A stretch of DNA of 64,000 nt from Strobilurus pachycystidiatus (taxonomy: Eukaryota; Basidiomycota; Agaricomycetes; Agaricales; Physalacriaceae): the NCBI GenBank assembly GCA_019915135.1, contig JAHLMK010000015.1:806001-870000 (forward strand), read 5' to 3'. Positions 10,380 to 64,000 of the stretch are shown in pieces (position 1 is the stretch's first letter; each line of letters begins with the position of its first letter). Both the position numbers and the translations under genes were made by a program. Under the pieces are notes generated by a model. The model did no database searches and had not been told where the DNA came from. It saw nothing but the letters and a program-made list of their open reading frames with translations.

Positions 10380-13300
10380 TCAGCCGGGGTTGGCTGCTCT
10401 GGCTGCTTGCGCGGCTGCGACCTCTGCCATCTGTGCGTTGAAGAGATCTTCGAAACTCCAGCCTACGGGGGGCGTTCGCGAGCGTCTGCTTGCCCGCGTT
10501 GTGCGTTCTCGTCGCGTGTGTGTTTTCTTCTTCGGGGGAGGGGGTGGTTCAATGTCTCCAAAGGTAGTAATGAAGCGGCTTGTGTCGGCAATGTATTGGA
10601 TGAGATGCGGCGTGAAGTTGGCGTTGTTGAGTAGATTGGCCTCGCTTGGATTTTCGCGTCCCGACTTTGTTGCTCGACGCAATCGTACTCTCTGGGTGGA
10701 GTATGCCGGGCATAGGTAGAGGAAATGGCGTACTGTCTCCCTGGGGTAATGGCAATTTGGGCATGCTGGTGACTCTGCGACGCCGATGTTATGAAGATGG
10801 TGGTTGAGAGGCGCGTGGTTGGTGCGGAGCTGGGTGAGAATGGACGTGACTTTTCGTGAGAAGTTCGCTGTCATCTTCGCGTAACGCTTCCCTATCTCCT
10901 TCGTCGTTCCACCCGCTAGCCCTTTTGATTTCATGTACCGTCTCGATTTTCGCCACCTAGCATTGTGTTTCTCGTGTAGACGTGCCAGGTGAGTCCTCCG
11001 CGCCGCTGATGAGGAGATGGGTAGTGTGGAGTGGAATATCCGGGGTAGCTTGCGATTCGCCGTGGAGTTCTTCGCTGAGCTTGCCGCCAACTTTGCCTCT
11101 CGATCCGCTGCTTCGTTGCCTGGTACGCCTGCGTGTCCTGGAATCCATCGGATAGCCAAATGCGCGCCAGGGTGCTTCCTCTTCAGTTCCTCGACCTCTC
11201 CGTGTAGTGCGTCTAGCAGGTAGTGGGACGGAGCTGGCTGTCGTAGCTGGGTTGCCTGTAGCGCTGGTTGGCTGTCAATCACTATCGTCGCCCTCGTCAC
11301 CCTCGCCTGATCTCTCAACATCCTCACCCCCACCACCATTCCTGCACATTCCCCTTCGTAAACTTCGTGGTGCCGATCCGGTCCCAGGTGTACTCTTCTC
11401 GCCTCTATCTCCCTGTCCCCCACAAATAACACCGCCGACGCTCCTACCCCGCCCTCAAAGCCCGATCCATCCGTGTATACCCTCATCCCATCGTCCTCCT
11501 CGTCTATCTTTATTGCCTTCACTCCATTGTTGTCCGTCGCGATAACGCTTACCCTTGACTTCCAATTACTGGGGTATCGTATCGCCTTGATTTTCTCCAT
11601 TCTATCCGGTCGTATCCTATACATATGCATGAGCCAATTCAATGGTGCGCGATGTCTTTTGATCATTGGTGTTCGTCCTGCGCGTCTGACCCTCGGTGCG
11701 AGCGGGTGGGTTCCTGGTAAGCATGCGTATCGAATTGCTGCTCGCTGTAGGTGTTTGTCGACCATTAAGTCCATCGGGAGCATGTTGGCATGAACGTTGA
11801 GCGTGTCGCCTGCTGTTGTCTTCATTGCGCCCATGATGATGATTTCCGCTCGTCGATGGATGGATTCTAGCTGCCGTATGATGGGATGTGAGCTGCGTCC
11901 GTCCTTCCTCGTTTTGGCTACAACCCTCGTGGGGGTGAGGAAGACGTCCGCCCCGTAGAGCATCCTCGGAATGCCGATGGCCAGGTACGCTCTCCGCATG
12001 AACCGCTGATGGACTCCCTTCGCCACCTTTGCGATCCTCTTCATCTTCCCTAGAAAGTCGTCCCCCTTCTTGACCGCCACCGCCCCCTGTTTCCGCCATC
12101 TCAAACCCGAATCCAGGATGAGTCCTAGAAACGTTCCCTCTGTCCTTGCCTCGATCTCCCGACCCTCTATCTTGATGCTCCTTCCAATGTCTGGTACCCT
12201 CATTGTGCTGCCTGGCTTCTTGGGATTTGGCGCGTTCCGCAGCCGTGTGGTAAAATCGACCAGCTGCCACTTGGGGATCCCAAACACGCTCCCTCTCTTC
12301 TTTGCCCATTCCAGCACCCCGCCTTCTCCCTCCATCACCTCCTTCAGCTTCTCGTGCGTGCCTCCTTCTCCGTCAAACTTCTTTGCCCTTGCCGCCGCCG
12401 CAATGTCGTCAATGTACCCAAAGCTCGGGACTCCTCTTTCTGTGAGTAGCTTGAGAAGGCTCGCGTTGTATAGGATGTAGAGCAGCTGCGCGAAAGGATC
12501 GCCTTGATCAAAGCCATTTTCAACCCTGAAAGGAGAAGATGAGTAGTCGTCAAATTTGAGGTTTGTCTTCCTCGCGTCCAGCCTCCGCTCGAGCCACGCC
12601 GTTAGCTCCCTGGGTATCCCCACCATTCGAAGTTCATGCACCGCTACCTCGACATTTGCAGTCGGGTACGCCGCCTTCACGTCCAAGAAGAGGACCGACA
12701 TCACATCCCTTGCTCGCCACGCCTCCTTGATCATTGATACCATTACCTGTATCGAGTCTGTGGTGCATCTGCCTGGTCGTCCTCCAAAATGGTTCTTGGG
12801 TAGCAGTCCCTTCAGCTCGCATTGCGCTAGAGCCATGTCATTGACGACTGCGTTCAGGCCTCGTCCCCACCCATCTGACAGCACTATCGGTCGCCATGAG
12901 CTTGGGTCGCTGTAGTCCGACTTCCCTGGTTTCCTAAAGATGATGGTGGTGGATCTTGCCATTTCCTCCGGGTACGTGCTGAGTGTAAACGTCGCTCTGT
13001 AGATGGGTCCTATGAAAGGCGCCAGTAGCCCCGCGCAAGTGTGTAGAACGTCGTTCGGGACCGTTCCTGGCATCGTAGCTTTTCCTTTCTTCATCTTTTT
13101 GAAAACCTGTTCAATTTGATAGTCAGTGGGTGGGATGAAATTCCATGCGGGCGGTGGATATCCCTCAGGTGGCGGCGTCGTCTCAAAATTCGACTTGGGT
13201 AGAAAAAATTGTGATTTGAGAACATCGGCTTTTTCAGCGTTTGTTGTCGCATCTACTCGTACACCGTCTACTTTCACCGTAAGGTTAGGTATGCGTGTTC

Positions 13301-14534
13301 TGGCTCCATCCGACGAAGGCTGCGAGATGTAGCTGCACTTCGTCCAGATGTCATTGCCGTCGGTACTATCCAGCCAGCCATCCCAGCATTCATTCTTCTC
13401 TTCGCGTAGCGCGTCCGAGTACGAATTTCGTGCCAATCTCGCCACCTCATGTTGCCCATGTCCAGGTGTGTCTTTGAACTTTGCAGCTTTACGCTGTTGC
13501 TTTCGCATCGCTGTTCGCAGATCCGCGAGTCGTTTGTTGAACCAACGTTTGGAATGGGGTGAGGGTTTTGTCATTGGGACTGTGCCCTCGATTGCCTTCT
13601 GCACCGCGTTGTTCAGACGCTCGAAAGCCGTCCTCATCGCCGCCTGATTGTGGATTTCCCGGGGTTTGGGTATTTGTTTCAGTTCCGCTGTCAGCGCCTT
13701 CTTGAAATCGCCCCAGTCTGTCACCCGGAAGTTTCGACGGGGAGTCTCATCCGCTAGTTCTATTCGCAAATCTAGGATGCCTCGGATCGGTATGTGATCT
13801 GTCTTTGGGGGGCGATTGGCGGGGTATGTGTTGCACTGTACAATTGACGTTAGTAAAAACTCTGATATGAATACATTATCAACACGCGTATAGTTACCCG
13901 TCGCTTGTGCGACCAGCGTTGGTAGGGACTCTGGCAATGCCATCTTCAGCCCCCTCCTTGCGACTATGTCCAGGAGGACTTGCGCCATCTCGAGATTCTT
14001 CTTGGTAAAAAGGTGCGCGTTTCGCGGCTCGTCCCATAGCGGATGGTGCCTGTTGAAGTCCCCTGCCCATAGAAAGTGAGTATCAACAGTTCGTCCTGCA
14101 CGTTTGGGTATGTGCGCCCCAAAGTCAAAATCGTCAACGAGTTGAATCGTCGCGTTACTTTCGCATGCGTTATAGATGTTGACCACCATCAGGTTCATAT
14201 CCTCGCGCTGCAAAAGTATAGCCGTTACGTCTGGAGACGGTATCGGTATGTTGATCCAGCTGTCTGTTGAGAGACGCTTGTTCACCAGCATTATCGAGCG
14301 CGTACGCTTTTTGTCGTCCCTCTCTTGATGGTCCGGTGGGTATACGACGTGCCAGTGCGGGGTCGCCGACGTGTTACCCAGAAAATTGAAACATGGTTCT
14401 TGTATCAGAACCAAATCGTCGTCACGGTGTAATTCGTGTAGCATAAGAAGTTGAGCGTCCAGAGATTTATTGACGTTTATCGACCAGAATTTGAGCAGTC
14501 CATCGTCCCTTCGTGTCGGGCGGTTGTCCGTCAT
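10380..14534 (-). CDS. LINE ORF2: endonuclease, reverse transcriptase, RNase H
   Basis: 1384 residues, unbroken. N-terminal APE-type endonuclease (about 1-260) with the motifs LIQEPCFN, AGDFNRHHPLW and TDHIPI. Reverse transcriptase follows (about 470-800): motif A FLDVKAAYP, motif B FDQGDPFAQ, active site YIDDIAA. An RNase H domain near 1070-1210 shows the full D-E-D-D set: VYTDGSG, YEGECAG, VIDSQPALQ and GNEAADREA. Near the C-terminus is a CPNC...H...C zinc-type motif, as in related LINEs. The protein nicks target DNA and primes reverse transcription there. Its ATG overlaps the ORF1 stop (ATGA), suggesting stop-restart translation. Confidence 0.95.
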   Translation of the reverse strand: MTDNRPTRRDDGLLKFWSINVNKSLDAQLLMLHELHRDDDLVLIQEPCFNFLGNTSATPHWHVVYPPDHQERDDKKRTRSIMLVNKRLSTDSWINIPIPSPDVTAILLQREDMNLMVVNIYNACESNATIQLVDDFDFGAHIPKRAGRTVDTHFLWAGDFNRHHPLWDEPRNAHLFTKKNLEMAQVLLDIVARRGLKMALPESLPTLVAQATGNYTRVDNVFISEFLLTSIVQCNTYPANRPPKTDHIPIRGILDLRIELADETPRRNFRVTDWGDFKKALTAELKQIPKPREIHNQAAMRTAFERLNNAVQKAIEGTVPMTKPSPHSKRWFNKRLADLRTAMRKQQRKAAKFKDTPGHGQHEVARLARNSYSDALREEKNECWDGWLDSTDGNDIWTKCSYISQPSSDGARTRIPNLTVKVDGVRVDATTNAEKADVLKSQFFLPKSNFETTPPPEGYPPPAWNFIPPTDYQIEQVFKKMKKGKATMPGTVPNDVLHTCAGLLAPFIGPIYRATFTLSTYPEEMARSTTIIFRKPGKSDYSDPSSWRPIVLSDGWGRGLNAVVNDMALAQCELKGLLPKNHFGGRPGRCTTDSIQVMVSMIKEAWRARDVMSVLFLDVKAAYPTANVEVAVHELRMVGIPRELTAWLERRLDARKTNLKFDDYSSSPFRVENGFDQGDPFAQLLYILYNASLLKLLTERGVPSFGYIDDIAAAARAKKFDGEGGTHEKLKEVMEGEGGVLEWAKKRGSVFGIPKWQLVDFTTRLRNAPNPKKPGSTMRVPDIGRSIKIEGREIEARTEGTFLGLILDSGLRWRKQGAVAVKKGDDFLGKMKRIAKVAKGVHQRFMRRAYLAIGIPRMLYGADVFLTPTRVVAKTRKDGRSSHPIIRQLESIHRRAEIIIMGAMKTTAGDTLNVHANMLPMDLMVDKHLQRAAIRYACLPGTHPLAPRVRRAGRTPMIKRHRAPLNWLMHMYRIRPDRMEKIKAIRYPSNWKSRVSVIATDNNGVKAIKIDEEDDGMRVYTDGSGFEGGVGASAVLFVGDREIEARRVHLGPDRHHEVYEGECAGMVVGVRMLRDQARVTRATIVIDSQPALQATQLRQPAPSHYLLDALHGEVEELKRKHPGAHLAIRWIPGHAGVPGNEAADREAKLAASSAKNSTANRKLPRIFHSTLPISSSAARRTHLARLHEKHNARWRKSRRYMKSKGLAGGTTKEIGKRYAKMTANFSRKVTSILTQLRTNHAPLNHHLHNIGVAESPACPNCHYPRETVRHFLYLCPAYSTQRVRLRRATKSGRENPSEANLLNNANFTPHLIQYIADTSRFITTFGDIEPPPPPKKKTHTRRERTTRASRRSRTPPVGWSFEDLFNAQMAEVAAAQAARAANPG

Positions 14535-16339
14535 AGTCTATCCCTTTGAGTCGAGGTGCTTCTCGATCGAGACCCAAAGTTGAGCTGGCCTTGGCGCATG
14601 CTCGATTGCGACCGCGCCCGAGCCATCTGAGAAGGTTTCACCTGTGAGCTGAGCTGTGACGGCGTCTGTTGTGCGTCCTCGTCGTCTCTAGGTGATCTTG
14701 ACCGTCGGTTCTGGGATCTGGGCTGTCGTATCAGGTCCTCCATATCCGCCGTCATGGGTCGGAATGTAGTGAACGCCGTAGGTTGGCTACCCTTGTCGAA
14801 CATGCGCCCCAGTTCCGCAAAAGTCGGCTCTGCTATTTCCCATGTCGAGGGATCCGCGGTAGGGTAGAATCGATATTGGTTGTCGGTATTTCGCCTATTG
14901 AGTTCCTCGTTGGCCTTGATGAAAGCCGGGCATATTCGCTCCGCCGCTCCGTGTCCGTTTCGCTTGCATGTCGCGCAGTAGAATTTGTCCCGTTCGCTGT
15001 TGATGATGGTACATCTGTCGGTGCGATGATTAGTACTGGCGCATCGTCCGCATGTCGAGTCGTGCGGGCACGTCCTTGCGTCGTGCGTCCTTGGCATTTG
15101 GTGGCACGATAGACATCTTTGTACCTCCTTCCTGTCGCGTCTCACCGATATCATCTTCCCCTCAAACACCATCCCTCTCTTGATGACATAGTTCGCCTCT
15201 CCTCGCGTTGCCATTCCCACCATGACATGTCCGAAACGTTGATTCTCCTTCCTCCTGTCCACCGCCTTCAGCCATCGTAGTGATGTTATCGCACCCGTCA
15301 CTAAGCCGCTGTCCTTCTCAATGTTTCGGCGCGTCTCGTCATCGTCGATGTCCGCTGAGAGTGGGACAAATTGAGCGACAACGGGGAAGGAAGGGGGAAG
15401 TATAGTGCAGCCCGCTTTCTTGAAAGCCGCGTCGAGTATCTCTGTCGCCTCGTTGTTGCGTATCGTGATGGCAACTTCGGGGGAGTTCACGAGGATGCTA
15501 GTGGCTCCTGACGCCAGTTTCTTTGTTGCTATGACCCGAGTCTCCCCCGCCTCGAATGTGTCGGTCAGAGTCGCGCAGGCGGCAAGTGCGTCGGCTATGA
15601 GTTCTGTAGCTTCCAGTGCAATATCCTTCTCGGGCTGGTTGAGCAGTCCAGGCGTGGCAGCTGGCGTGAGTGGTTTGATGATGAAGCGGCGCTCTGCCGT
15701 ATCGCCTCTGGCTATAGCGTCGCCGTGCTGGGTGGGAAGCTGAGCTTGGGATGTGGGCTGCTGCGCCTGGTAGTAGTCGGAATCGAAAGTCGGAGGGGGT
15801 GATGCGTGGTGGGCCGCGATGTTGGCGTATGTGGGCGCCGTGGTGCGGTCAGTTGCGGCTCTCTTCAGATTCTCTGCGAGCTCCCTGTTGCTCTTCGTCT
15901 GTGCCTCGGCATGCACGGTCGCCTCCTCCTGCCTCGTCAGGTTTGTCGCCATAGAGTTCACGATCTCCTGTAGCCGTTTGTACTGGTCGTCAAAAAGTAG
16001 CGCCGTTGCGTTCATTTTCAGCGCGTCGTGCTCGTTGCCGTTCGCCACTTCCAGTTCCAATAGCGCGATTATTGCCAGTATACTGGGCTGTATCTTGGGT
16101 CTCGAGGTTTTCGGCACCGGTGACTTGTCGTTGTATGCCAGTTCTCGGAGCGCGTCTATCGCCATCTTCCTCGCCTCCCCCGGCCCCGTTCCTCTCCTCG
16201 CATCTCTTCCCAACAGCCCTGCTTCCGTCAGGATCATCCTCTGCGTCTCTATCTTCGTCGTCACTCCTTTCTCTCCTGCCCCTCCTCCCGGGTCATTCAT
16301 TCCTTCTTGCGGCGGTTCGGACGCGCCTCGCGGGGGCAT
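14531..16339 (-). CDS. LINE ORF1: RNA-binding Gag-like protein with CCHC knuckles
   Basis: 602 residues, unbroken. A Pro/Gly-rich start is followed by a likely coiled-coil region (about 115-165), a middle domain with RRM-like strand patterns (about 215-400), then three zinc-knuckle-like motifs at about 409-470. The clearest is CGRCASTNHRTDRC (CX2CX4HX4C), followed by CATCKRNGH...C. A Ser/Arg-rich tail follows. Such ORF1 proteins coat the element RNA. The stop codon TGA overlaps the ORF2 start in ATGA at 14534-14531. Confidence 0.92.
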   Translation of the reverse strand: MPPRGASEPPQEGMNDPGGGAGEKGVTTKIETQRMILTEAGLLGRDARRGTGPGEARKMAIDALRELAYNDKSPVPKTSRPKIQPSILAIIALLELEVANGNEHDALKMNATALLFDDQYKRLQEIVNSMATNLTRQEEATVHAEAQTKSNRELAENLKRAATDRTTAPTYANIAAHHASPPPTFDSDYYQAQQPTSQAQLPTQHGDAIARGDTAERRFIIKPLTPAATPGLLNQPEKDIALEATELIADALAACATLTDTFEAGETRVIATKKLASGATSILVNSPEVAITIRNNEATEILDAAFKKAGCTILPPSFPVVAQFVPLSADIDDDETRRNIEKDSGLVTGAITSLRWLKAVDRRKENQRFGHVMVGMATRGEANYVIKRGMVFEGKMISVRRDRKEVQRCLSCHQMPRTHDARTCPHDSTCGRCASTNHRTDRCTIINSERDKFYCATCKRNGHGAAERICPAFIKANEELNRRNTDNQYRFYPTADPSTWEIAEPTFAELGRMFDKGSQPTAFTTFRPMTADMEDLIRQPRSQNRRSRSPRDDEDAQQTPSQLSSQVKPSQMARARSQSSMRQGQLNFGSRSRSTSTQRDRL

Positions 16340-55649: not shown

Positions 55650-56500
55650 CATTGGACGATAGAAGATATTAGAATACCATCACTGGTATACGACAATCCG
55701 AGGCCACTCTTGATACTTGCCGTGGGATGGGAGATACCGGCAAAATGCGAGAGCATAGTCAGTATCAGGACTCACATCACGCTGCAAGAACGAGGCTATC
55801 AATGTCACTTGTGGGAGAATGGGAAATATTGTCACTGTGCTAGAACAAGGCCATCGCTGACACTCGCTCTGCTACAGGACTGAGGACGTCATAGTGCAAG
55901 AACGAGGCCACCATTGACGACGGGAAGCATGCATGCAGAAGTCGTGCTAGTGAACCAGCATGGTGCGACAGAACCAGCATGGTGCGACAGAACCAGCATG
56001 GTGCGACAGAACCAGCATAGTGCGACAGCAGACCTTACTGATGCTCGCCGTGCAACGAGCGATACTGCCATAAGGCTTGAAGAACGAGGCCGCCATTGAC
56101 ACTTGCTCTGCAGTGGAAAGCATAGCGAAAGGACCACCTGGTACTCGACACGCAGATGCTGGAGGATAACCGGCAACAAAGTGACATTGATGGCGCTTGC
56201 CGTGCAACCTGATATACATACCGTCACGATGCAAGATCGAGGCCTCCATCGACACTTGCTCTGTGACGGGAAGCATACGCAAAGAGACCATTTGGTACTT
56301 ACTCGACACGGGGAAGACAAGGCATTGATGATGCTCCGTTCGGTGGGAGATAACTTACCGCCATGATGTGACAACAAGGTACTCTTGCCACGCGTGGCGC
56401 GACGGGAATATACCATCATAGTGCAGCAACGCGACCAGAAGTATAGGGGAGTACCGCCATAGTGCGACACAAGGCCACTATTACATCAGCAAATCCGGGA
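55650..56500. repeat. Decayed minisatellite field
   Basis: The words (A/C)GAGGCC(A/G)CCATTGACACTT and CGGGAAGCAT recur about seven times at uneven spacing. The best copies lie near 55900, 56085 and 56240. Many copies are diverged. Contains the tidy 19-bp array at 55952-56027. Confidence 0.6.
55952..56027 (+). repeat. Tandem array, 19 bp x 4
   Basis: Four direct copies of AACCAGCATGGTGCGACAG, the last with one change (ATAGTG). No spacers. Confidence 0.9.
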
Positions 56501-57441
56501 AAAGTAGATACGGGTTACAGTTACCGATCGTCTGCAATCAACGGAGATATCGTATTATAATGTTGCTATAAGCTGGTATAAGCTTTTTGTGATTCTATCA
56601 TTACCTATAGTTTGCTGTAATGATTTTGGTGCATTACAAGGTCAGTATAGTATTTGCAGCATTTCATAGAGTACATACCGGTGCTGTGTCCATGTCACTC
56701 ATGACCCGCTCATGACAAGTCAGAAGATGGTAAACACCGGAGAAGCAGGCTGTTGTCATTGTAGAGCTCTATGCACACTTGTCTCATCGGTACATATTGG
56801 GTGACAGTGTCTCGTACCAGTCGTACCATGAGCAGACCCTGAGCAGGGTACCAGGGACTGAAGGAGAAACTCGAAATCGTCAAGTCCATTTGAAGCTCCG
56901 ATCGGTCCGAATGCTTACCGGTTGCCGAGGATAAAAAATCACTCTCAAACATGGGCTCGGTAATGATGCTGGTGCCTGACGTAACCAAATTAAATAAAAA
57001 GAAAAGAAAAGAAAAAGAAAAAAGAGAGGAAAAGAGAAAGAAAAGAAAGAAACTTGTTAGCGCACCTCGGGTGAATCAATCAGAGTTTTCCTGGGTTAGA
57101 TGGGGACCGTGGGCGACGTCGAGGAAACACATGTGCCCATTACGGGAAGTGCCATCATTGCCGCCCGACTTCCAGATCTGGCAGTCGCGCTCGCAAGATA
57201 GCAAATAATGCTCGCACTCAGAAGATATCGATGCGCCAGCTCTGTAAATTTTCTATTACAATGAATCATATGAAGTACACCGTCTACGATTTTACTAGAT
57301 TAATGATGATTTATTTACTATGCAGAGAAATCGTCTTGTGAAGCGAAGTTGTTATCTGCGGAGTTTGAATGGGCTGATGAGCGCATTCTCATCAGTGTCA
57401 TTTGTCTATCAACCACAACCACGTCGAACACCGAGAGACCT
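56501..57441. other. Spacer with purine tract
   Basis: A purine (A/G) run covers about 56988-57050. Otherwise no gene seen. Confidence 0.45.
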
Positions 57442-57461
57442 GACGCGCGGCACCGCGCGTC
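57442..57461 (+). repeat. Perfect short inverted repeat GACGCGCGG..CCGCGCGTC
   Basis: Nine-base arms separated by CA, about 240 bases past the stop of the large nuclease gene. Related GACGCGCG words occur at 62877-62897 on the other side of that gene. Confidence 0.5.
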
Positions 57462-57700
57462 TTGGTTTGCTTTTGACATCCGCCAACGTCAACGGAGGCC
57501 TCACCGAGATGCGCCTAGCTCGACGCTCGATTTTGCCTACTCGGATCGGGCGTACTCGTAGGGTGGCTCAGATGGACACTCCATTGGTGTCAATACGGTG
57601 CGTATACCTGCAGTATGTATTGATTCTTTGTTTTAATCTATTCATGCTATAATCTAGTGCTCTAATAGTCGTTTCATCATCCGCGCCGCCCACTCTCCGC

Positions 57701-60700
57701 CTATTCTTCCATCGATGCTGGATCGACACGTCGGGTTCGACTCCCGTTGGAAGACTCAACGATTCTCCTCTTGTGGCCTCTACGACTGTCCCCCGACGTC
57801 CCCTCTCTCTCGCAAAGCGTCGGACACTGCTTCTTTGGATTACGCTTGGGACGGCCAGGACATGCACGATCGCCGCAATCCCTGCATGGATTCGGGCAGG
57901 CATTACGACTGCTGTTTCCTTTGCATCGTGTCGCGAGATTTCCGCATTTGATGCATGTCCTCGGTGCGCGATCCTTTGTTCCATCTGAAGTCGACGTCGA
58001 AGGCGCGTTGATAGTCGCAGCATTGACTTCTGTCTCCGTCTGTATAGATGATCTTTGTGCCGGCGTCTGGCTCGCGACCTCGCTCGTTTGAACTGGTGCC
58101 ACTTCTGATGACGGCTCGACGGATGCGACTACACCATCAGGCAGGTCAAGCGTGCGCTTCGATTGGACGGCTCGCTTTTGCAGCCCTTTGCCGGAGCTTG
58201 GAAACACGACGCTTGACATCGAGTTGCTGGTTTCAGCGGTAGGCACCACATCTTTGAGGCCAGTACTAGGTGCGGCTGGTAAGGATCTCTGCGCGACGGG
58301 GACAACAGATGGTGCGTTCTTTACGCGATTCGCAATATCACGGATGAGTTTGTCGACATCCTTTCGGGCGTCGTACGTCGCCAGTCTCGTGTGTTTGACG
58401 TTGACTAAAGTTTTCCAGGCCCCGTACTGAGTTTTGAGATGTTCGATTAGCTGTAAAACTTGATGAGCATTCGCTCTGTCCAGTAATTGGATATATGCTT
58501 ACCTTGTAGAAGACGACTTTTCCATCGGCCTCTCGATTCCAGCGCTTTACTGCGTTGGCCCAGATTGGACCTGCTTCGCCGTTGAAGGCAGGATCTAATC
58601 GCATGAAATCCGAAAATAATTTGCGCTCGGCAGTGGTATGGACATTGAGGACAGCAAAACGGGTACCCTGGCGTCCAGCTAGGTAAGCATATTTCTTCGG
58701 CTTATCAAGAGAGTCGAATGACAAGATGTCGCCAGAATCTTTCACCGGTGCGGGAATTGGAAGTATGCCAAATACTTCGGTTGTTGGCTCATAGAGAGCG
58801 CCGTTGACCCAGCCAGCAACTGGCCGCAGCAATGGTACAAGCTTCCGTATGTCGTCGGAATTACACAGTGTCTGATAATGATTGATCAGCCACAGGTCAA
58901 AGTGTCCACGATACGGTACACCCGTCATGTTTCGTACGCCATTCTTAAATGGATGTCAGCCTAATTCCCATCAATCAGAGATCTTCCAACGTACACGCAT
59001 GTTGTGACGAAATGAGTAGTCCGTCAAGCGATTCACGGTATGTCGCGGGGATGCGCCATTGATTGGCATGCAACGGCGAATAGGGCGATGGACACCACCC
59101 TCCGTCGCGTTTGTACCTCGGAAGCAGCGATAAATTGGGAGCCCAGTCTCAGATGAGTATCCCATGAAATGATAGAGTGCCAGACCAGGCGGATCGGAGA
59201 TGTACCCAGCTCGGATAATGATCAGGATATTCTTGATTGTCTTCCAAGTCGATGCATTGAACAGAGGAAGACCAGTTTCTGCATCCTTCAGTGGTCCGTA
59301 TCTTTTGAAGACAGCAGCGACTACAGGATAGAGCTTCTCGGCAGGTGGAACAACAAATCGACAGTGCCTCTTGATGAAGCGAGGGTTAGACTGTAGACAT
59401 TCGTCCCAAGTCTGGGGCGGAGATTGGCGGGAGAGGTATGAGACGATCCGTTTTTGATCTTCACGATCAGGCAGGAAGATGGCGTCGCGAAGAGCTCTCG
59501 AGAACGTGACACGTAGTCCGTGGGCTTTGGGTACCCAGATCATTTGGAAAACATGGAAGATATCCTTGAGAACTCGGCTACGCGTCTCAGCTGGCCACGA
59601 GAGATCAGAGATGAAGTCCGAAATCTTCTGCCAGGCCGCTTCAGCAGTAGCATCACGTGTCAAGCCGCTGGAGTCATTAATAGTGTCTAGAAGAGCATCG
59701 ACATCAAAGCCAACATCGACACCATCAGACCCAGGCCCGGGAGCTGGCGCAGTGTCCGAGTCAGAGTTGACATCGAGGGCACGGACTGCCTCCTCAATGA
59801 CAAGTGTTGCCCGCGTATCTGCGGCTGCAGAAACAGGTGAAACTGTGCCATCGTCCTCGACCGGTGAGAACTCGGGAACATGAGTCTTCAGGCGATCTCG
59901 TTTCACCACGACGTCAAAGGGAAGAGCACCAAACGAAGAAAGGGATCGTGCCTCCTGCCCTTTTTTCGAATGAACAGACATGATAGCAGCTGGGACAAAG
60001 ATCTCCGTCACTCGAACAATGACCCGAGTTTTGGTGATACTGATCCCATCGAGCTCGATGACCTGGCCAAACTGGGGAGAAATAGAACCACGGGCAACAA
60101 TTTTGGTACGGTCATCCTGATAGATGAAGACATTGGTATCGGAAGTGGGTAAGGGATCCCAGGAGAGTGGCGACGGAATTTGCATCGAAGTCAGAGCCCG
60201 GTGGAGGAGAATAGATGCCCACACATCATTGGCAGCGTAACGGGTTTGTTCAGGGCTCAGAACATCTGCGTTCCACTCGGGGCTTACCCTCGTGGAGGGA
60301 TCCTTGTCAAGTCGTCGTTTGAGCACCTGAGCAGTCAAATCAGCGAGACTGATGCGTGCACTGGAGATCACGCCCATTTGCTTTGCAAGATGAGCTAGAT
60401 CGACGCCCCCAACAAATGGCTTTGAGGACTTGGCTTCGTCTTGAAGGTGACGTAAATCCTGAGCGATGTTTTTGCCGACTTTCAGAATGCGTGGATTCGC
60501 CAGAAGGGTAGCTAACTGCGGTGGAAAATGGCCTGAGACTACGTGTTTCGAAAGCTGCAAAGGTTACTGAGCAATGAAAGAATGTATAATGGATGGAACT
60601 GACCTGGAGAATCCATACCGTATCAGCAGATGCGATTTGAACGATGGCTGTTTGTCGTCGGTCATCCAGACCTTGCCGCCTCGCATCCAAATCAACGTTC

Positions 60701-62776
60701 CATTCGGTGTCAAGTGCAATGACTAGTTGCGCGTCTTCATCATCCGAAGTCGAGTCAATAAGCGTAAGAACCATTGTCTCAATCTCCGTTAGGGACGTGC
60801 ATATGATGACGTTGACCTCAGGGGGTATCGAGAGTACTTCCAGCTCATCGTGAGGCGATATGGCCTTGACACCCTCTCTGAGACTTGGTAGACACTTTTC
60901 GAGAAATGGCTTGTCTGCCATATTATCGGTGAAGACACACTTTGGCGGCGTGAGTCCGTACTTGTTGATGGATTCACACATCTCGGTAAGTGCGATCTCG
61001 AATTGCGAATGCGCCTTAGTTGGCACAAAGTCACATATACGAAGTTGACTATAATGATTTGTCCCCGAAAGAAGGCCATTGAAGACGACTTCTCCACAGA
61101 TTTTTGCGACCATCTTCGGGAGCTAAAAAAATGAGTAATTGTTGTGACTCGTGGCAGTAGTACACGGCATACCTTGAAGCTGTGATCAAATGAGAGAATG
61201 TCGGTAGGGATCATTGCCATATGCTGATGAAATTCCTGGGCGTGAGACTCAATGAACGCGTCGTAGATTTCTTTGCACCATAGGCCAGAGGGTATGCCGG
61301 CATGAAGTCCAGTGTCGTCCTTTTCGTCAAATGCTGGAAATGGCGAGTAGGTCCTGTTTGCATCTGCGCCGCCTCTACGAAACCGCCTGAGAATTGTTTC
61401 GAGATATTGCACTTCCAGCAACTGGTAACGTCGTCTATGAAGAACATTGAGCATATCGGAAAATTGCTTGGCTCCGACACCATTCTGGAAGCAGCATCGC
61501 AAAAATGCGAAGACAGCGCTAGAGACACCACTTCGGTGACTAAGAACTGCTGGAAACTCCGAGACGAGCTCTGGGGGAAGCATCTTCATGATAGCGGTGC
61601 TCCAGCTACGGTAGGTTCGGACTGGATTCTTGCACACCGTGCACCTGTAGCGAGGACCAAAGAGCCAAAAAGTATCCTCAAAGTCTACAACCCGCCGCGG
61701 CCGTGTCGAATGCTCGTGGCGGGTCATGCGACCGAGACATCCGTCTATTGGACATTTGATTTCGTCGACGAGGAGGAGTGGGTCCCAGTAAAAGAATCGG
61801 GGATTGAAGAGGTCCCATGGCGAGATATTAGAGCGTTGGAGGACGAAGAATGTTGGCGTACGGGGGCGCCAAAAAGACTGCATTTCATCGTAGACACATG
61901 TCTTCATACTTTTGATGTGGGCGACCTGTTTCTCGAAGACGCGCATGACCCACGATGGCGGCGGACGAGGATCAGAAGCGTTCTCTGGTATGGCTTCGCC
62001 TGTCGGGAAACCCTCATCATCATCGTCACCGTCCTCATCGCGTTCCCGGTCGTCATCCTCATCAACCCCAAAGCTCTCTGGTATGATCCTAAGTGGGTCC
62101 GCTGGAGGAATGATGTGCGTCTCTTCGGGTGTTGGGACGCTGGCAGGATTGGGCGTTGACGTCCTGTCTGGGAATGTCGTCCCGCGTTCCGCATCATTCG
62201 CATTGCTTGTGGCTGCCACAAAGATTGGGGCGATGGTCCTTGTTGAAGTAACGGGAAAGAGATTGACATTTTCTTGAAGCTAGTATTTGAAGTTAGGCAG
62301 ACAGTAGACACAGGACAATGGAAAGCATACCTGGGATTGCGAAGTGCCGAATCTATATATTTTATGGCGTCTGCGTCTTTTTTGCGCTCCGGAGTCCGAC
62401 TCGCCATCATCTGTCTCACTGGTCTCTGTCTCGTCGTCTTGTTCTCCGAGTTGAGGTTGCGAGGCTTTGGGAGGTCGTCCTCTTGGCCGCTTTACAAGGG
62501 GCTGACCATCTGGTAAGTCTTGCACAACCTTGCGTGGACGTCCGCGTGGGCGCTTGGGGGGCGGCGGCTCCAGAGGATCCCTGAGTTTTGGTGGTCGTCC
62601 TCGTCCTCGCTTTGCAGGTACTGAAGCAGATACAGACTCTGCTAGTGGGTAAGCACCGAGCTGGAGAAGAGAGAAGGATACACACCATCACACTGGGGAG
62701 AATATTCGTCTCCAGACATCTCATCGTCTCCTTCAGACAGAGTGCTGACCGCGCGAGTCTCTTCGTTGTTTTGCAT
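57701..62776 (-). CDS. Transposase-like protein with inserted DEDDy 3'-5' exonuclease and AT-hooks
   Basis: About 1.5-1.6 thousand residues in six or more exons. Exon 1 starts at ATG 62776 (MQNNEETRAVSTLSEGD). Next come three AT-hooks (KRGRGRPPK, KRPRGRPRK, KRPRGRPPK) and acidic stretches. A zinc-ribbon-like region follows (IKCPIDGCLG ... RYRCTVCKN), resembling what I recall as DUF6729. Then a helical region precedes SFDHSFK (first Asp, about residue 500) and VFTDN (second Asp). A complete DEDDy exonuclease follows: ALDTEW, NIAQDLRHL, YAANDVW. The host fold resumes at LKDIFHVFQ and RGTNATEGGVHR (presumptive Glu), and YRGHFDLWL follows. The C-terminal Cys-rich CIKCGN...CPNPCRDCG block and basic tail end at 57701. 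Mobile-element derived by inference. Confidence 0.75.
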
Positions 62777-63244
62777 GGGCGGATAGTCGTTCTGGGCCGT
62801 TGGGGAGGTGAAGAATGGATTCAGACAGGATTAATCGTATGAAACGATGTATTAAGATAAAATAAAGAGGGGGACGGACGCGCGCAGACGCGCGCGGTAT
62901 AGAGTACGAGAGTTGGGTTGATGTTAAAAGGGCCGTCTGCTCCTTTCGAGACTGTGGCCGATGCCTGGGAAAGAATAGCCATTTTCATTGAAACTCCGAC
63001 GATGACAACCCGAGATAACAAAACACCAGCATACGAATCGAGCCCAAACATGGATCAACATAACGCTGCTCTCTCCTCAACCACTACCTCCCTCAGCCGC
63101 GCCCTCGAAACTGCCGGTCTACGGGTTCAGCTGCACGATACTCTTCGTCCCGTCGCCCCCGCCCTACAACTTTCGCACCCCAACGCTCGAGCTTATACTG
63201 GACGACCACGTTGAATTGCTTTTGGAAGACGGCCACCCAAACAC
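62777..63244. other. Upstream region of the large gene; doubtful short frame
   Basis: Contains GACGCGCG words at 62877-62897. A plus-strand frame from 63002 (MTTRDNKTPAYESS) of about 70 residues has no recognised family. Confidence 0.35.
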
Positions 63245-63515
63245 TCGACGACGACGACCCGAATGCCCGACGACAAATACCTAAATGCCTGACGACGACG
63301 ACCCGAGCGCCTGACGACGACGACCCGAGCGCCTGACGACGACGACCCGAGCGCCTGACGACGACGACCCGAGCGCCTGACGACGACGACCCGAGCCTCT
63401 GACGACGACGACCCGAGCCTCTGACGACGACGACCAGCACGCCTGACGACGACGACCCGCACGCCTGACGACGGCTACCCGAACGCCTGACAACAACGAC
63501 CCGAACGCTAGACAA
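63245..63515. repeat. 22-bp minisatellite, about 12 copies
   Basis: Unit CCTGACGACGACGACCCGAG plus CG. The central copies are perfect, the edge copies degenerate. Because 22 is not a multiple of 3, all three minus-strand frames stay open with the same 22-residue period. Confidence 0.9.
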
Positions 63516-64000
63516 CGACCCACTGGACGCCAAACCACGACGTATTCACTAGATTGTGAGACCACTGGACGTCCGGCGCCGCCCGAGCCTGTTGACTCTC
63601 CCGCACTTAGACGATAACGACCAGTGTGTTGTCATTTGGCTCCGCTCGTGGCACTGTAATTAGAAATCTGCCTGTACCTAAATACTTTTATGCAACCATT
63701 TGCCCCACCTTTTGTTCGATGTGGTTTGGATGTCGTGTCACCGTTCCGGTTCCAATCTGTTCCCGATTTGATACAATAGTGGGAACGTCGGCTTCATATG
63801 ATGCTGTATTTGGTTATCGTCACCGGAAATCTTTATGAGTACGGGGCAGGACCGTAGTCGATATGCCAAATCATAGGTGTTTATGTTTCTCGCAGGTCCA
63901 CTATAGTAAGGTTATGATCTGTGGTATAAAGATGATACAATATTATAGTGATTACACGACGTGACAGTGAATTATGACACCCCATCAACTTTTCCCAGAT
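63516..64000. other. Window end, no gene seen
   Basis: AT-rich sequence with only short frames. Confidence 0.4.

What the first reader, a model, noticed from the sequence alone, without database searches (positions are those of the whole stretch)
57701..62776. Exonuclease domain inserted inside a transposase-like acidic triad
Seen: Asp in SFDHSFK, Asp in VFTDN, then a full DEDDy exonuclease (DTE, NIAQD, YAAND), then LKDIFH and GTNATEGGVHR. The last motif looks like the Glu-bearing TNxxEg element that closes the catalytic triad in IS256/MULE-type transposases. Known: DDE transposases commonly carry insertion domains between the second Asp and Glu. Inference: here the insert is a nuclease of its own, giving one protein two possible nuclease centres plus AT-hooks and zinc motifs. 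I know of no described system of this design.
Basis: partly seen in the sequence, partly recalled or inferred. Interest (0 to 1): 0.88.

Follow-up and report, generated by a model that had tools for sequence, protein, structure and literature searches.

The report
Jumping gene carrying its own exonuclease
A fungal jumping gene, of a kind first described in 2013, makes a cut-and-paste enzyme with a second, strand-trimming enzyme built into it; the fused design is already known, but this copy shows the element's exact ends and hints that it can multiply in place, head to tail.

Summary
Window 57701-62776 (-) is a seven-exon gene for a 1592-residue protein: AT-hooks, DUF6729 zinc region, D499, D569, a complete WRN-like DEDDy exonuclease, D1007xxH1010, E1161. 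It lies in a 6091-bp DNA transposon (56954-63044) with 21-nt inverted ends and an 8-bp duplication, CATGTTTG; uninterrupted counterpart sites exist elsewhere in the genome. The design is not undescribed: PMC3706591 (2013) reports a DEDDy exonuclease between the second Asp and DxxH of Dada transposases from Laccaria and Ectocarpus. Both sites are conserved in homologs and under purifying selection. Distances between the triad residues could not be measured; two models show DDE-like strand/helix order. Departures from the published Dada description: 8-bp duplications, true inverted ends, no recognisable small-RNA target. Also seen: head-to-tail arrays with 6-7 bp spacers, which where testable equal the 8-bp duplication minus 1-2 bp, and one insertion site present with one unit on one contig and three identical units on another. 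Verdict: new variant of a known kind.

The parts
56954..63044 (-). whole transposon, 6091 bp, oriented with the gene
   Evidence: same boundaries as the C1 copies; ends and flanks read
63045..63052 (-). 8-bp target site duplication CATGTTTG, upstream copy
   Evidence: single copy in uninterrupted counterparts
56946..56953 (-). 8-bp target site duplication CATGTTTG, downstream copy
63024..63044 (-). left (5') terminal inverted repeat arm, 21 nt
   Evidence: 76% complementary to the other arm
56954..56974 (-). right (3') terminal inverted repeat arm, 21 nt
62686..62776 (-). exon 1, start codon
62331..62641 (-). exon 2 (three AT-hook-like motifs, residues 44-89)
61173..62279 (-). exon 3 (DUF6729 and first Asp)
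60604..61122 (-). exon 4 (second Asp, first half of exonuclease)
58995..60554 (-). exon 5 (second half of exonuclease, DxxH, Glu)
58503..58943 (-). exon 6
57701..58450 (-). exon 7, cysteine cluster 1509-1556, stop
61329..61913 (-). DUF6729 match; zinc cysteines C310, C315, C347, C350
   Evidence: Pfam PF20499
61185..61187 (-). D499, first Asp of the triad
   Evidence: 77 of 78 homologs
60925..60927 (-). D569, second Asp of the triad
   Evidence: 82 of 83
60183..60843 (-). inserted DEDDy exonuclease, about residues 597-800, spans intron 4; catalytic D641, E643, D709, D786
   Evidence: Pfam; WRN fold match in homolog models; span transferred from the homolog model by alignment
59553..59564 (-). 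DxxH motif, D1007-H1010
   Evidence: 83 of 84 and 82 of 83
59100..59102 (-). E1161, Glu of the triad
   Evidence: 78 of 78

Best explanation
An autonomous, apparently intact DNA transposon of the Dada type, in its exonuclease-bearing branch. Its one protein is a DDE transposase (D499, D569, E1161, with D1007xxH1010) with a WRN-like DEDDy 3'-5' exonuclease inserted between the second Asp and the DxxH motif. Shown: intact gene, conserved residues of both centres, 8-bp duplication, inverted ends, uninterrupted counterpart site, purifying selection on both enzyme parts. Inferred: zinc and AT-hook parts bind transposon ends or target; the DDE centre cuts and joins the ends with an 8-bp stagger; the exonuclease trims 3' ends exposed during transposition (the role proposed in PMC3706591, untested; I give this role about 0.45). 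Inferred from junctions, about 0.35: the right end can also be joined 6-7 bp outside a left end, through a circle or between sister copies, giving head-to-tail arrays in place.
Against: Triad geometry not measured. No direct comparison with a verified Dada protein; animal Dada proteins were not reached by the searches. Three published Dada traits are not met: 6-7 bp duplication, absence of terminal inverted repeats, small-RNA gene target; the C-terminal CCHC motif is not met as written. Profile comparison with IS256 and MULE is not significant. No activity shown for either centre.
Confidence: 0.8

Rival explanations
1. A separate transposon superfamily with a Dada-like domain set but its own ends, 8-bp duplication and loose targets, rather than a branch of Dada.
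For: 8-bp duplications at unrelated sites, terminal inverted repeats, no small-RNA targets found.
Against: Domain order, zinc spacing, D-D spacing, DxxH, tandem copies and exonuclease position agree with the published Dada description, which names Laccaria members with this exonuclease; two Laccaria proteins are among the homologs (P0075 41% over 72%, P0078 37% over 53%), though I could not verify that they are Dada-1_LB and Dada-2_LB.
Confidence: 0.15
2. The head-to-tail arrays are assembly artefacts or ordinary unequal recombination, not products of the transposase.
For: Units are identical or nearly so. C40 is a short contig (102 kb) whose locus is identical to one on C6 over 640 and 40 flanking bases.
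Against: A right-end / 6-bp / left-end junction does not exist in a single copy, so misjoining a single copy would not create it; five junctions in four arrays have 6 or 7 bp; a pattern search allowing 0-14 bp found 3 places, all with 6 bp, and none with the reversed control; tandem zebrafish Dada-U1 copies are reported 6 bp apart too.
Confidence: 0.25
3. The exonuclease is a passenger or serves a structural or RNA-related role, not end processing.
For: WRN, RNase D, Rrp6 and Nibbler folds, which act on DNA or RNA, all match; Dada members without a reported exonuclease also make 6-bp tandem junctions, so those junctions do not need it.
Against: All four catalytic residues are conserved in 96% or more of the homologs with a residue there and dN/dS is 0.039, so catalysis itself is selected.
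Confidence: 0.4

Closest known systems
[quoted passage not shown] parts 1-3 of 4 read)
   Same: DDE transposase with DxxH; DEDDy exonuclease between second D and DxxH; N-terminal CCCC motif with similar spacing; introns; element length within 4666-10979 bp; tandem copies 6 bp apart reported for Dada-U1
   Different: Here 8-bp duplications instead of 6-7; terminal inverted repeats present; sites not recognisable small-RNA genes; C-terminal cluster lacks the His of CCHC
IS256 / MULE transposases
   Same: Motif order D, D, C/DxxH, TNxxE, seen by eye in two IS256-family proteins
   Different: No significant profile similarity; no exonuclease in the sequences compared
WRN / RNase D family DEDDy exonucleases
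   Different: Here embedded in a transposase, not next to a helicase

Membership tests
Dada | Conserved D, D, E and a DxxH motif after the second D | tested here: met
   D499, D569, D1007xxH1010, E1161 conserved; D-D spacing 70, against 68 in Dada-U6_DR; spatial triad not measured
Dada | DEDDy exonuclease between second D and DxxH (Laccaria, Ectocarpus members) | tested here: met
Dada | N-terminal CCCC zinc motif (C389, C394, C429, C432) | tested here: met
   C310, C315, C347, C350; homolog columns C310 69 of 71, C315 66 of 69, C347 67 of 67, C350 only 46 of 60
Dada | C-terminal CCHC zinc motif | tested here: not met
   C1509, C1512, C1519, C1528 and more cysteines, but no His in the listed stretch
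Dada | 6-7 bp target site duplication | tested here: not met
   8 bp at four independent sites: window, C20, C3 outer, C40/C6 derivative. The paper sees 8 bp around Dada-U1 and does not rule it out; its Dada-U6 sites show 6
Dada | Insertion in snRNA or tRNA genes | tested here: not met
   Rfam: 0 matches in 13 copy loci, where a target gene would be split, and 0 at E up to 0.1 in 6 loci with counterpart sites. The C40 and C6 derivative loci were not scanned. PMC3706591 gives no target for the Laccaria members
Dada | No terminal inverted repeats, short sub-terminal ones instead (as stated for Dada-U6 and Dada-U1) | tested here: not met
   21-nt arms at the very ends, 76% complementary
Dada | Sequence homology to a published Dada transposase | tested here: inconclusive
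   Laccaria proteins P0075 and P0078 found, identity with Dada-1_LB / Dada-2_LB not verified; Dataset S1 not readable here
IS256 / MULE | Transposase profile similarity | tested here: inconclusive
   hhalign probability 0.3 (IS256, 3 sequences) and 2.7 at best (MULE, 4 loci) percent
DDE / RNase H-like fold | D, D and E meet in one site of an RNase H-like fold | not testable with these tools
   Strand and helix order fits in two models, fold order recalled; coordinates not available; fold lists are filled by exonucleases
DEDDy exonuclease | Four acidic residues plus Tyr in a WRN-like fold | tested here: met
   Y782 81 of 85
KDZ (considered because of the 8-bp duplication) | KDZ transposase and CxC zinc domains | tested here: inconclusive
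   No KDZ or CxC model among the Pfam matches; no KDZ sequence was compared

The most novel reading that the evidence does not exclude
Besides ordinary 8-bp integration, this transposase has a second reaction that joins the element's right end 6-7 bp outside a left end (as a circle or between sister copies) and so multiplies the element, and its non-autonomous derivative, head to tail in place; the built-in exonuclease helps shape the ends. The 6-bp duplication assigned to Dada-U1 partly from tandem copies might then be a tandem junction rather than the integration stagger (this does not extend to Dada-U6, whose sites show 6 bp).
Probability: 0.35. Interest if true: 0.7.

Novelty: new variant of a known kind. 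Interest (0 to 1): 0.5.

Why it matters
One polypeptide with two metal-nuclease centres, both under selection, is a natural system for asking why a cut-and-paste enzyme keeps a 3'-5' exonuclease. The defined ends and duplications make the exonuclease-bearing Dada branch testable. The insertion site seen with one unit on one contig and three on another, with a junction 2 bp shorter than the duplication, gives a concrete DNA product to look for and bears on how the Dada-U1 duplication length should be read.

Tried and rejected
Literature: the bare Pfam name gave 0 papers. Passages only were seen of PMC12730594 and PMC12810828, in which the word exonuclease does not occur; PMC8869645 on fish Dada, no exonuclease; PMC12477816, one Dada family in Ectocarpus, no exonuclease; PMC8290104, searched for Dada and Dileera only; PMC4046053; PMC3985635, no Dada; PMC5718144, no Dada. 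PMC3706591 is the only description of the design that I found; searches. Repbase Reports and most subscription papers are not in that library.

Small-RNA target: not found for the sites tested; ARAGORN found one tRNA in 13 loci, in L015, about 3.5 kb from the element fragment there. C1 array: flanks found only at their own place, no duplication on the right. C27 copy: lacks the first 37 bp, no duplication. C16 and the second C20 locus gave no convincing duplication.

IS256/MULE profile test not significant; its best IS256 alignment puts the second Asp on the second Asp but DxxH out of register. PDB profile search without the exonuclease gave nothing relevant. Exonuclease-free relatives were not reached: of 23 homologs listed, 12 have both transposase parts and all 12 have a long insert between them; the other 11 show one part only. 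A cruder motif scan in that call flagged P0042 and P0085 as short; I did not follow these up. Fold searches list only exonucleases, so no known DDE structure appeared; that does not exclude one.

Full report
What is there. The gene at 57701-62776 on the minus strand has seven exons, six introns of 44-52 nt and an open frame of 1592 codons. Pfam finds DUF6729 and a 3'-5' exonuclease domain.

It is a transposon. The window copy and two copies on contig C1 share the same boundaries. The window element runs 56954-63044, starts GGCTCG and ends CGAGCC in the gene's direction, has 21-nt inverted ends, 76% complementary, and CATGTTTG on both sides. CATGTTTG alone is not rare: 3 matches in the window, 2.2 expected; what counts is its place at both ends and the joined flanks with one CATGTTTG, which match two other places at 99% over 144 of 144 bases. 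The element entered a dispersed repeat that includes a minisatellite at 63228-63520 and is shared with C4 and C1.

Copies. A search with the 529-aa frame gave 19 matching places, from 20 candidates scored (a lower bound by the tool's own note). Copies on C1 (two in tandem), C3 (two in tandem), C27, C20, C40 and C16 were compared.

Two enzyme centres. In the alignment with 86 homologs each triad, DxxH and DEDD residue is kept in 96% or more of the rows that have a residue there. Between the window and C1 copies dN is 0.069 and dS 0.59 over 1584 codons; dN/dS is 0.039 for residues 625-812 (exonuclease, 188 codons), 0 for 481-600, 0.061 for 991-1350, 0.056 for 260-480, 0.282 for the N-terminus and 0.231 for the tail (simple Nei-Gojobori counts in a script).

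Known design. Kojima and Jurka (PMC3706591; [quoted passage not shown] The claim of an undescribed design is therefore wrong. The Laccaria members bear no target name in that paper's table, and I saw no termini for them in the text read.

What differs. Both outer sides carry the same 8 bp at the window site, at C20 (GAAATTTC), around the C3 array (AGATAACC) and around a 641-bp derivative on C40 and C6 (GCGAGAGT). C1 and C27 show none, and the C40 autonomous array shows its 8-mer (TTGGTATA) on the right only, its first unit being truncated. Counterparts that span the site were found for window, C20 and C3, the C3 site lying in a tandem repeat of roughly 105 bp; none for C1; C27 and the C40 sites were not searched for counterparts. 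The 8-mers are unrelated by eye, and Rfam gave no match.

Tandem arrays. Four arrays were seen: C1, C3, C40 autonomous, C40 derivative. Their five inner spacers are TTTAGC, GATAACC, GGTATA, and GAGAGT twice. In the three arrays with a known outer 8-mer (C3, both on C40) the spacer is that 8-mer without its first 1-2 bases, on the side of the upstream unit's right end. For C1 the left flank AATTTAGC would fit, the right flank does not repeat it. A search for right end, 0-14 free bases, left end of the window family found three places, all with 6 bases, none with the reversed control. The derivative matches the window element at about 90% over 51 and 97 bases at its two ends, plus two short inner matches. 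It stands once on C6 and three times in tandem on C40: 0 differences among the three units, 641 of 641 identical to C6, left flanks 640 of 640 and right flanks 40 of 40 identical; a 600-base stretch of the left flank was found in these two places only. One insertion site thus exists with one and with three units. Whether C40 and C6 are two haplotypes, a recent duplication or two assemblies of one locus is not known.

Reading. PMC3706591 sees 8-bp repeats around Dada-U1 copies but proposes 6 bp for three reasons: tandem copies separated by GCGAAT, a tandem pair with no additional nucleotides under that assumption, and agreement with the Dada-U6 flanks; it does not rule out 8. The arrays here show the same 8 against 6, with 8 supported by unrelated sites and spanning counterparts. 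Dada-U6 sites, by that paper, show 6, so the point does not extend to them. The simplest single chemistry for the arrays is a join of the right end to a point 6-7 bp outside a left end (inference). Since Dada-U1 is not reported to carry the exonuclease, the shortening need not involve it.

Verdict. Observation confirmed; domain design known since 2013; the element is Dada-type but departs from the published description in duplication length, ends, targets and the C-terminal zinc motif, so I file it as a variant rather than a plain member, and its tandem amplification is worth a direct test.

Noticed in passing
G000 C40:43681-45615 (L061) and C6:1142860-1143500 (L062): 641-bp non-autonomous derivative of the window element: one unit on C6, three identical tandem units with 6-bp spacers on C40, same flanks.
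   Followed up: partly
window 10380-16339 (-): Looks like a non-LTR retrotransposon: 1384-aa frame with endonuclease, reverse transcriptase and RNase H matches, preceded by a 602-aa frame without a match.
   Followed up: no
window 56484-56953 and 63045-64000: Dispersed repeat with a minisatellite (63228-63520) in which the element sits; related copies on C4 and C1.
   Followed up: partly
L016/L017 (G000 C3) and L018 (C27): A second, diverged exonuclease-bearing family, with near-identical copies (99.6-99.9%), so several lineages of the element coexist in this genome.
   Followed up: partly
homologs P0085, P0087, P0086, P0091-P0103: Relatives outside mushrooms: a chytrid (Rhizoclosmatium), a diatom fragment (Nitzschia, P0102) and unnamed metagenome proteins, several with the exonuclease.
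   Followed up: no
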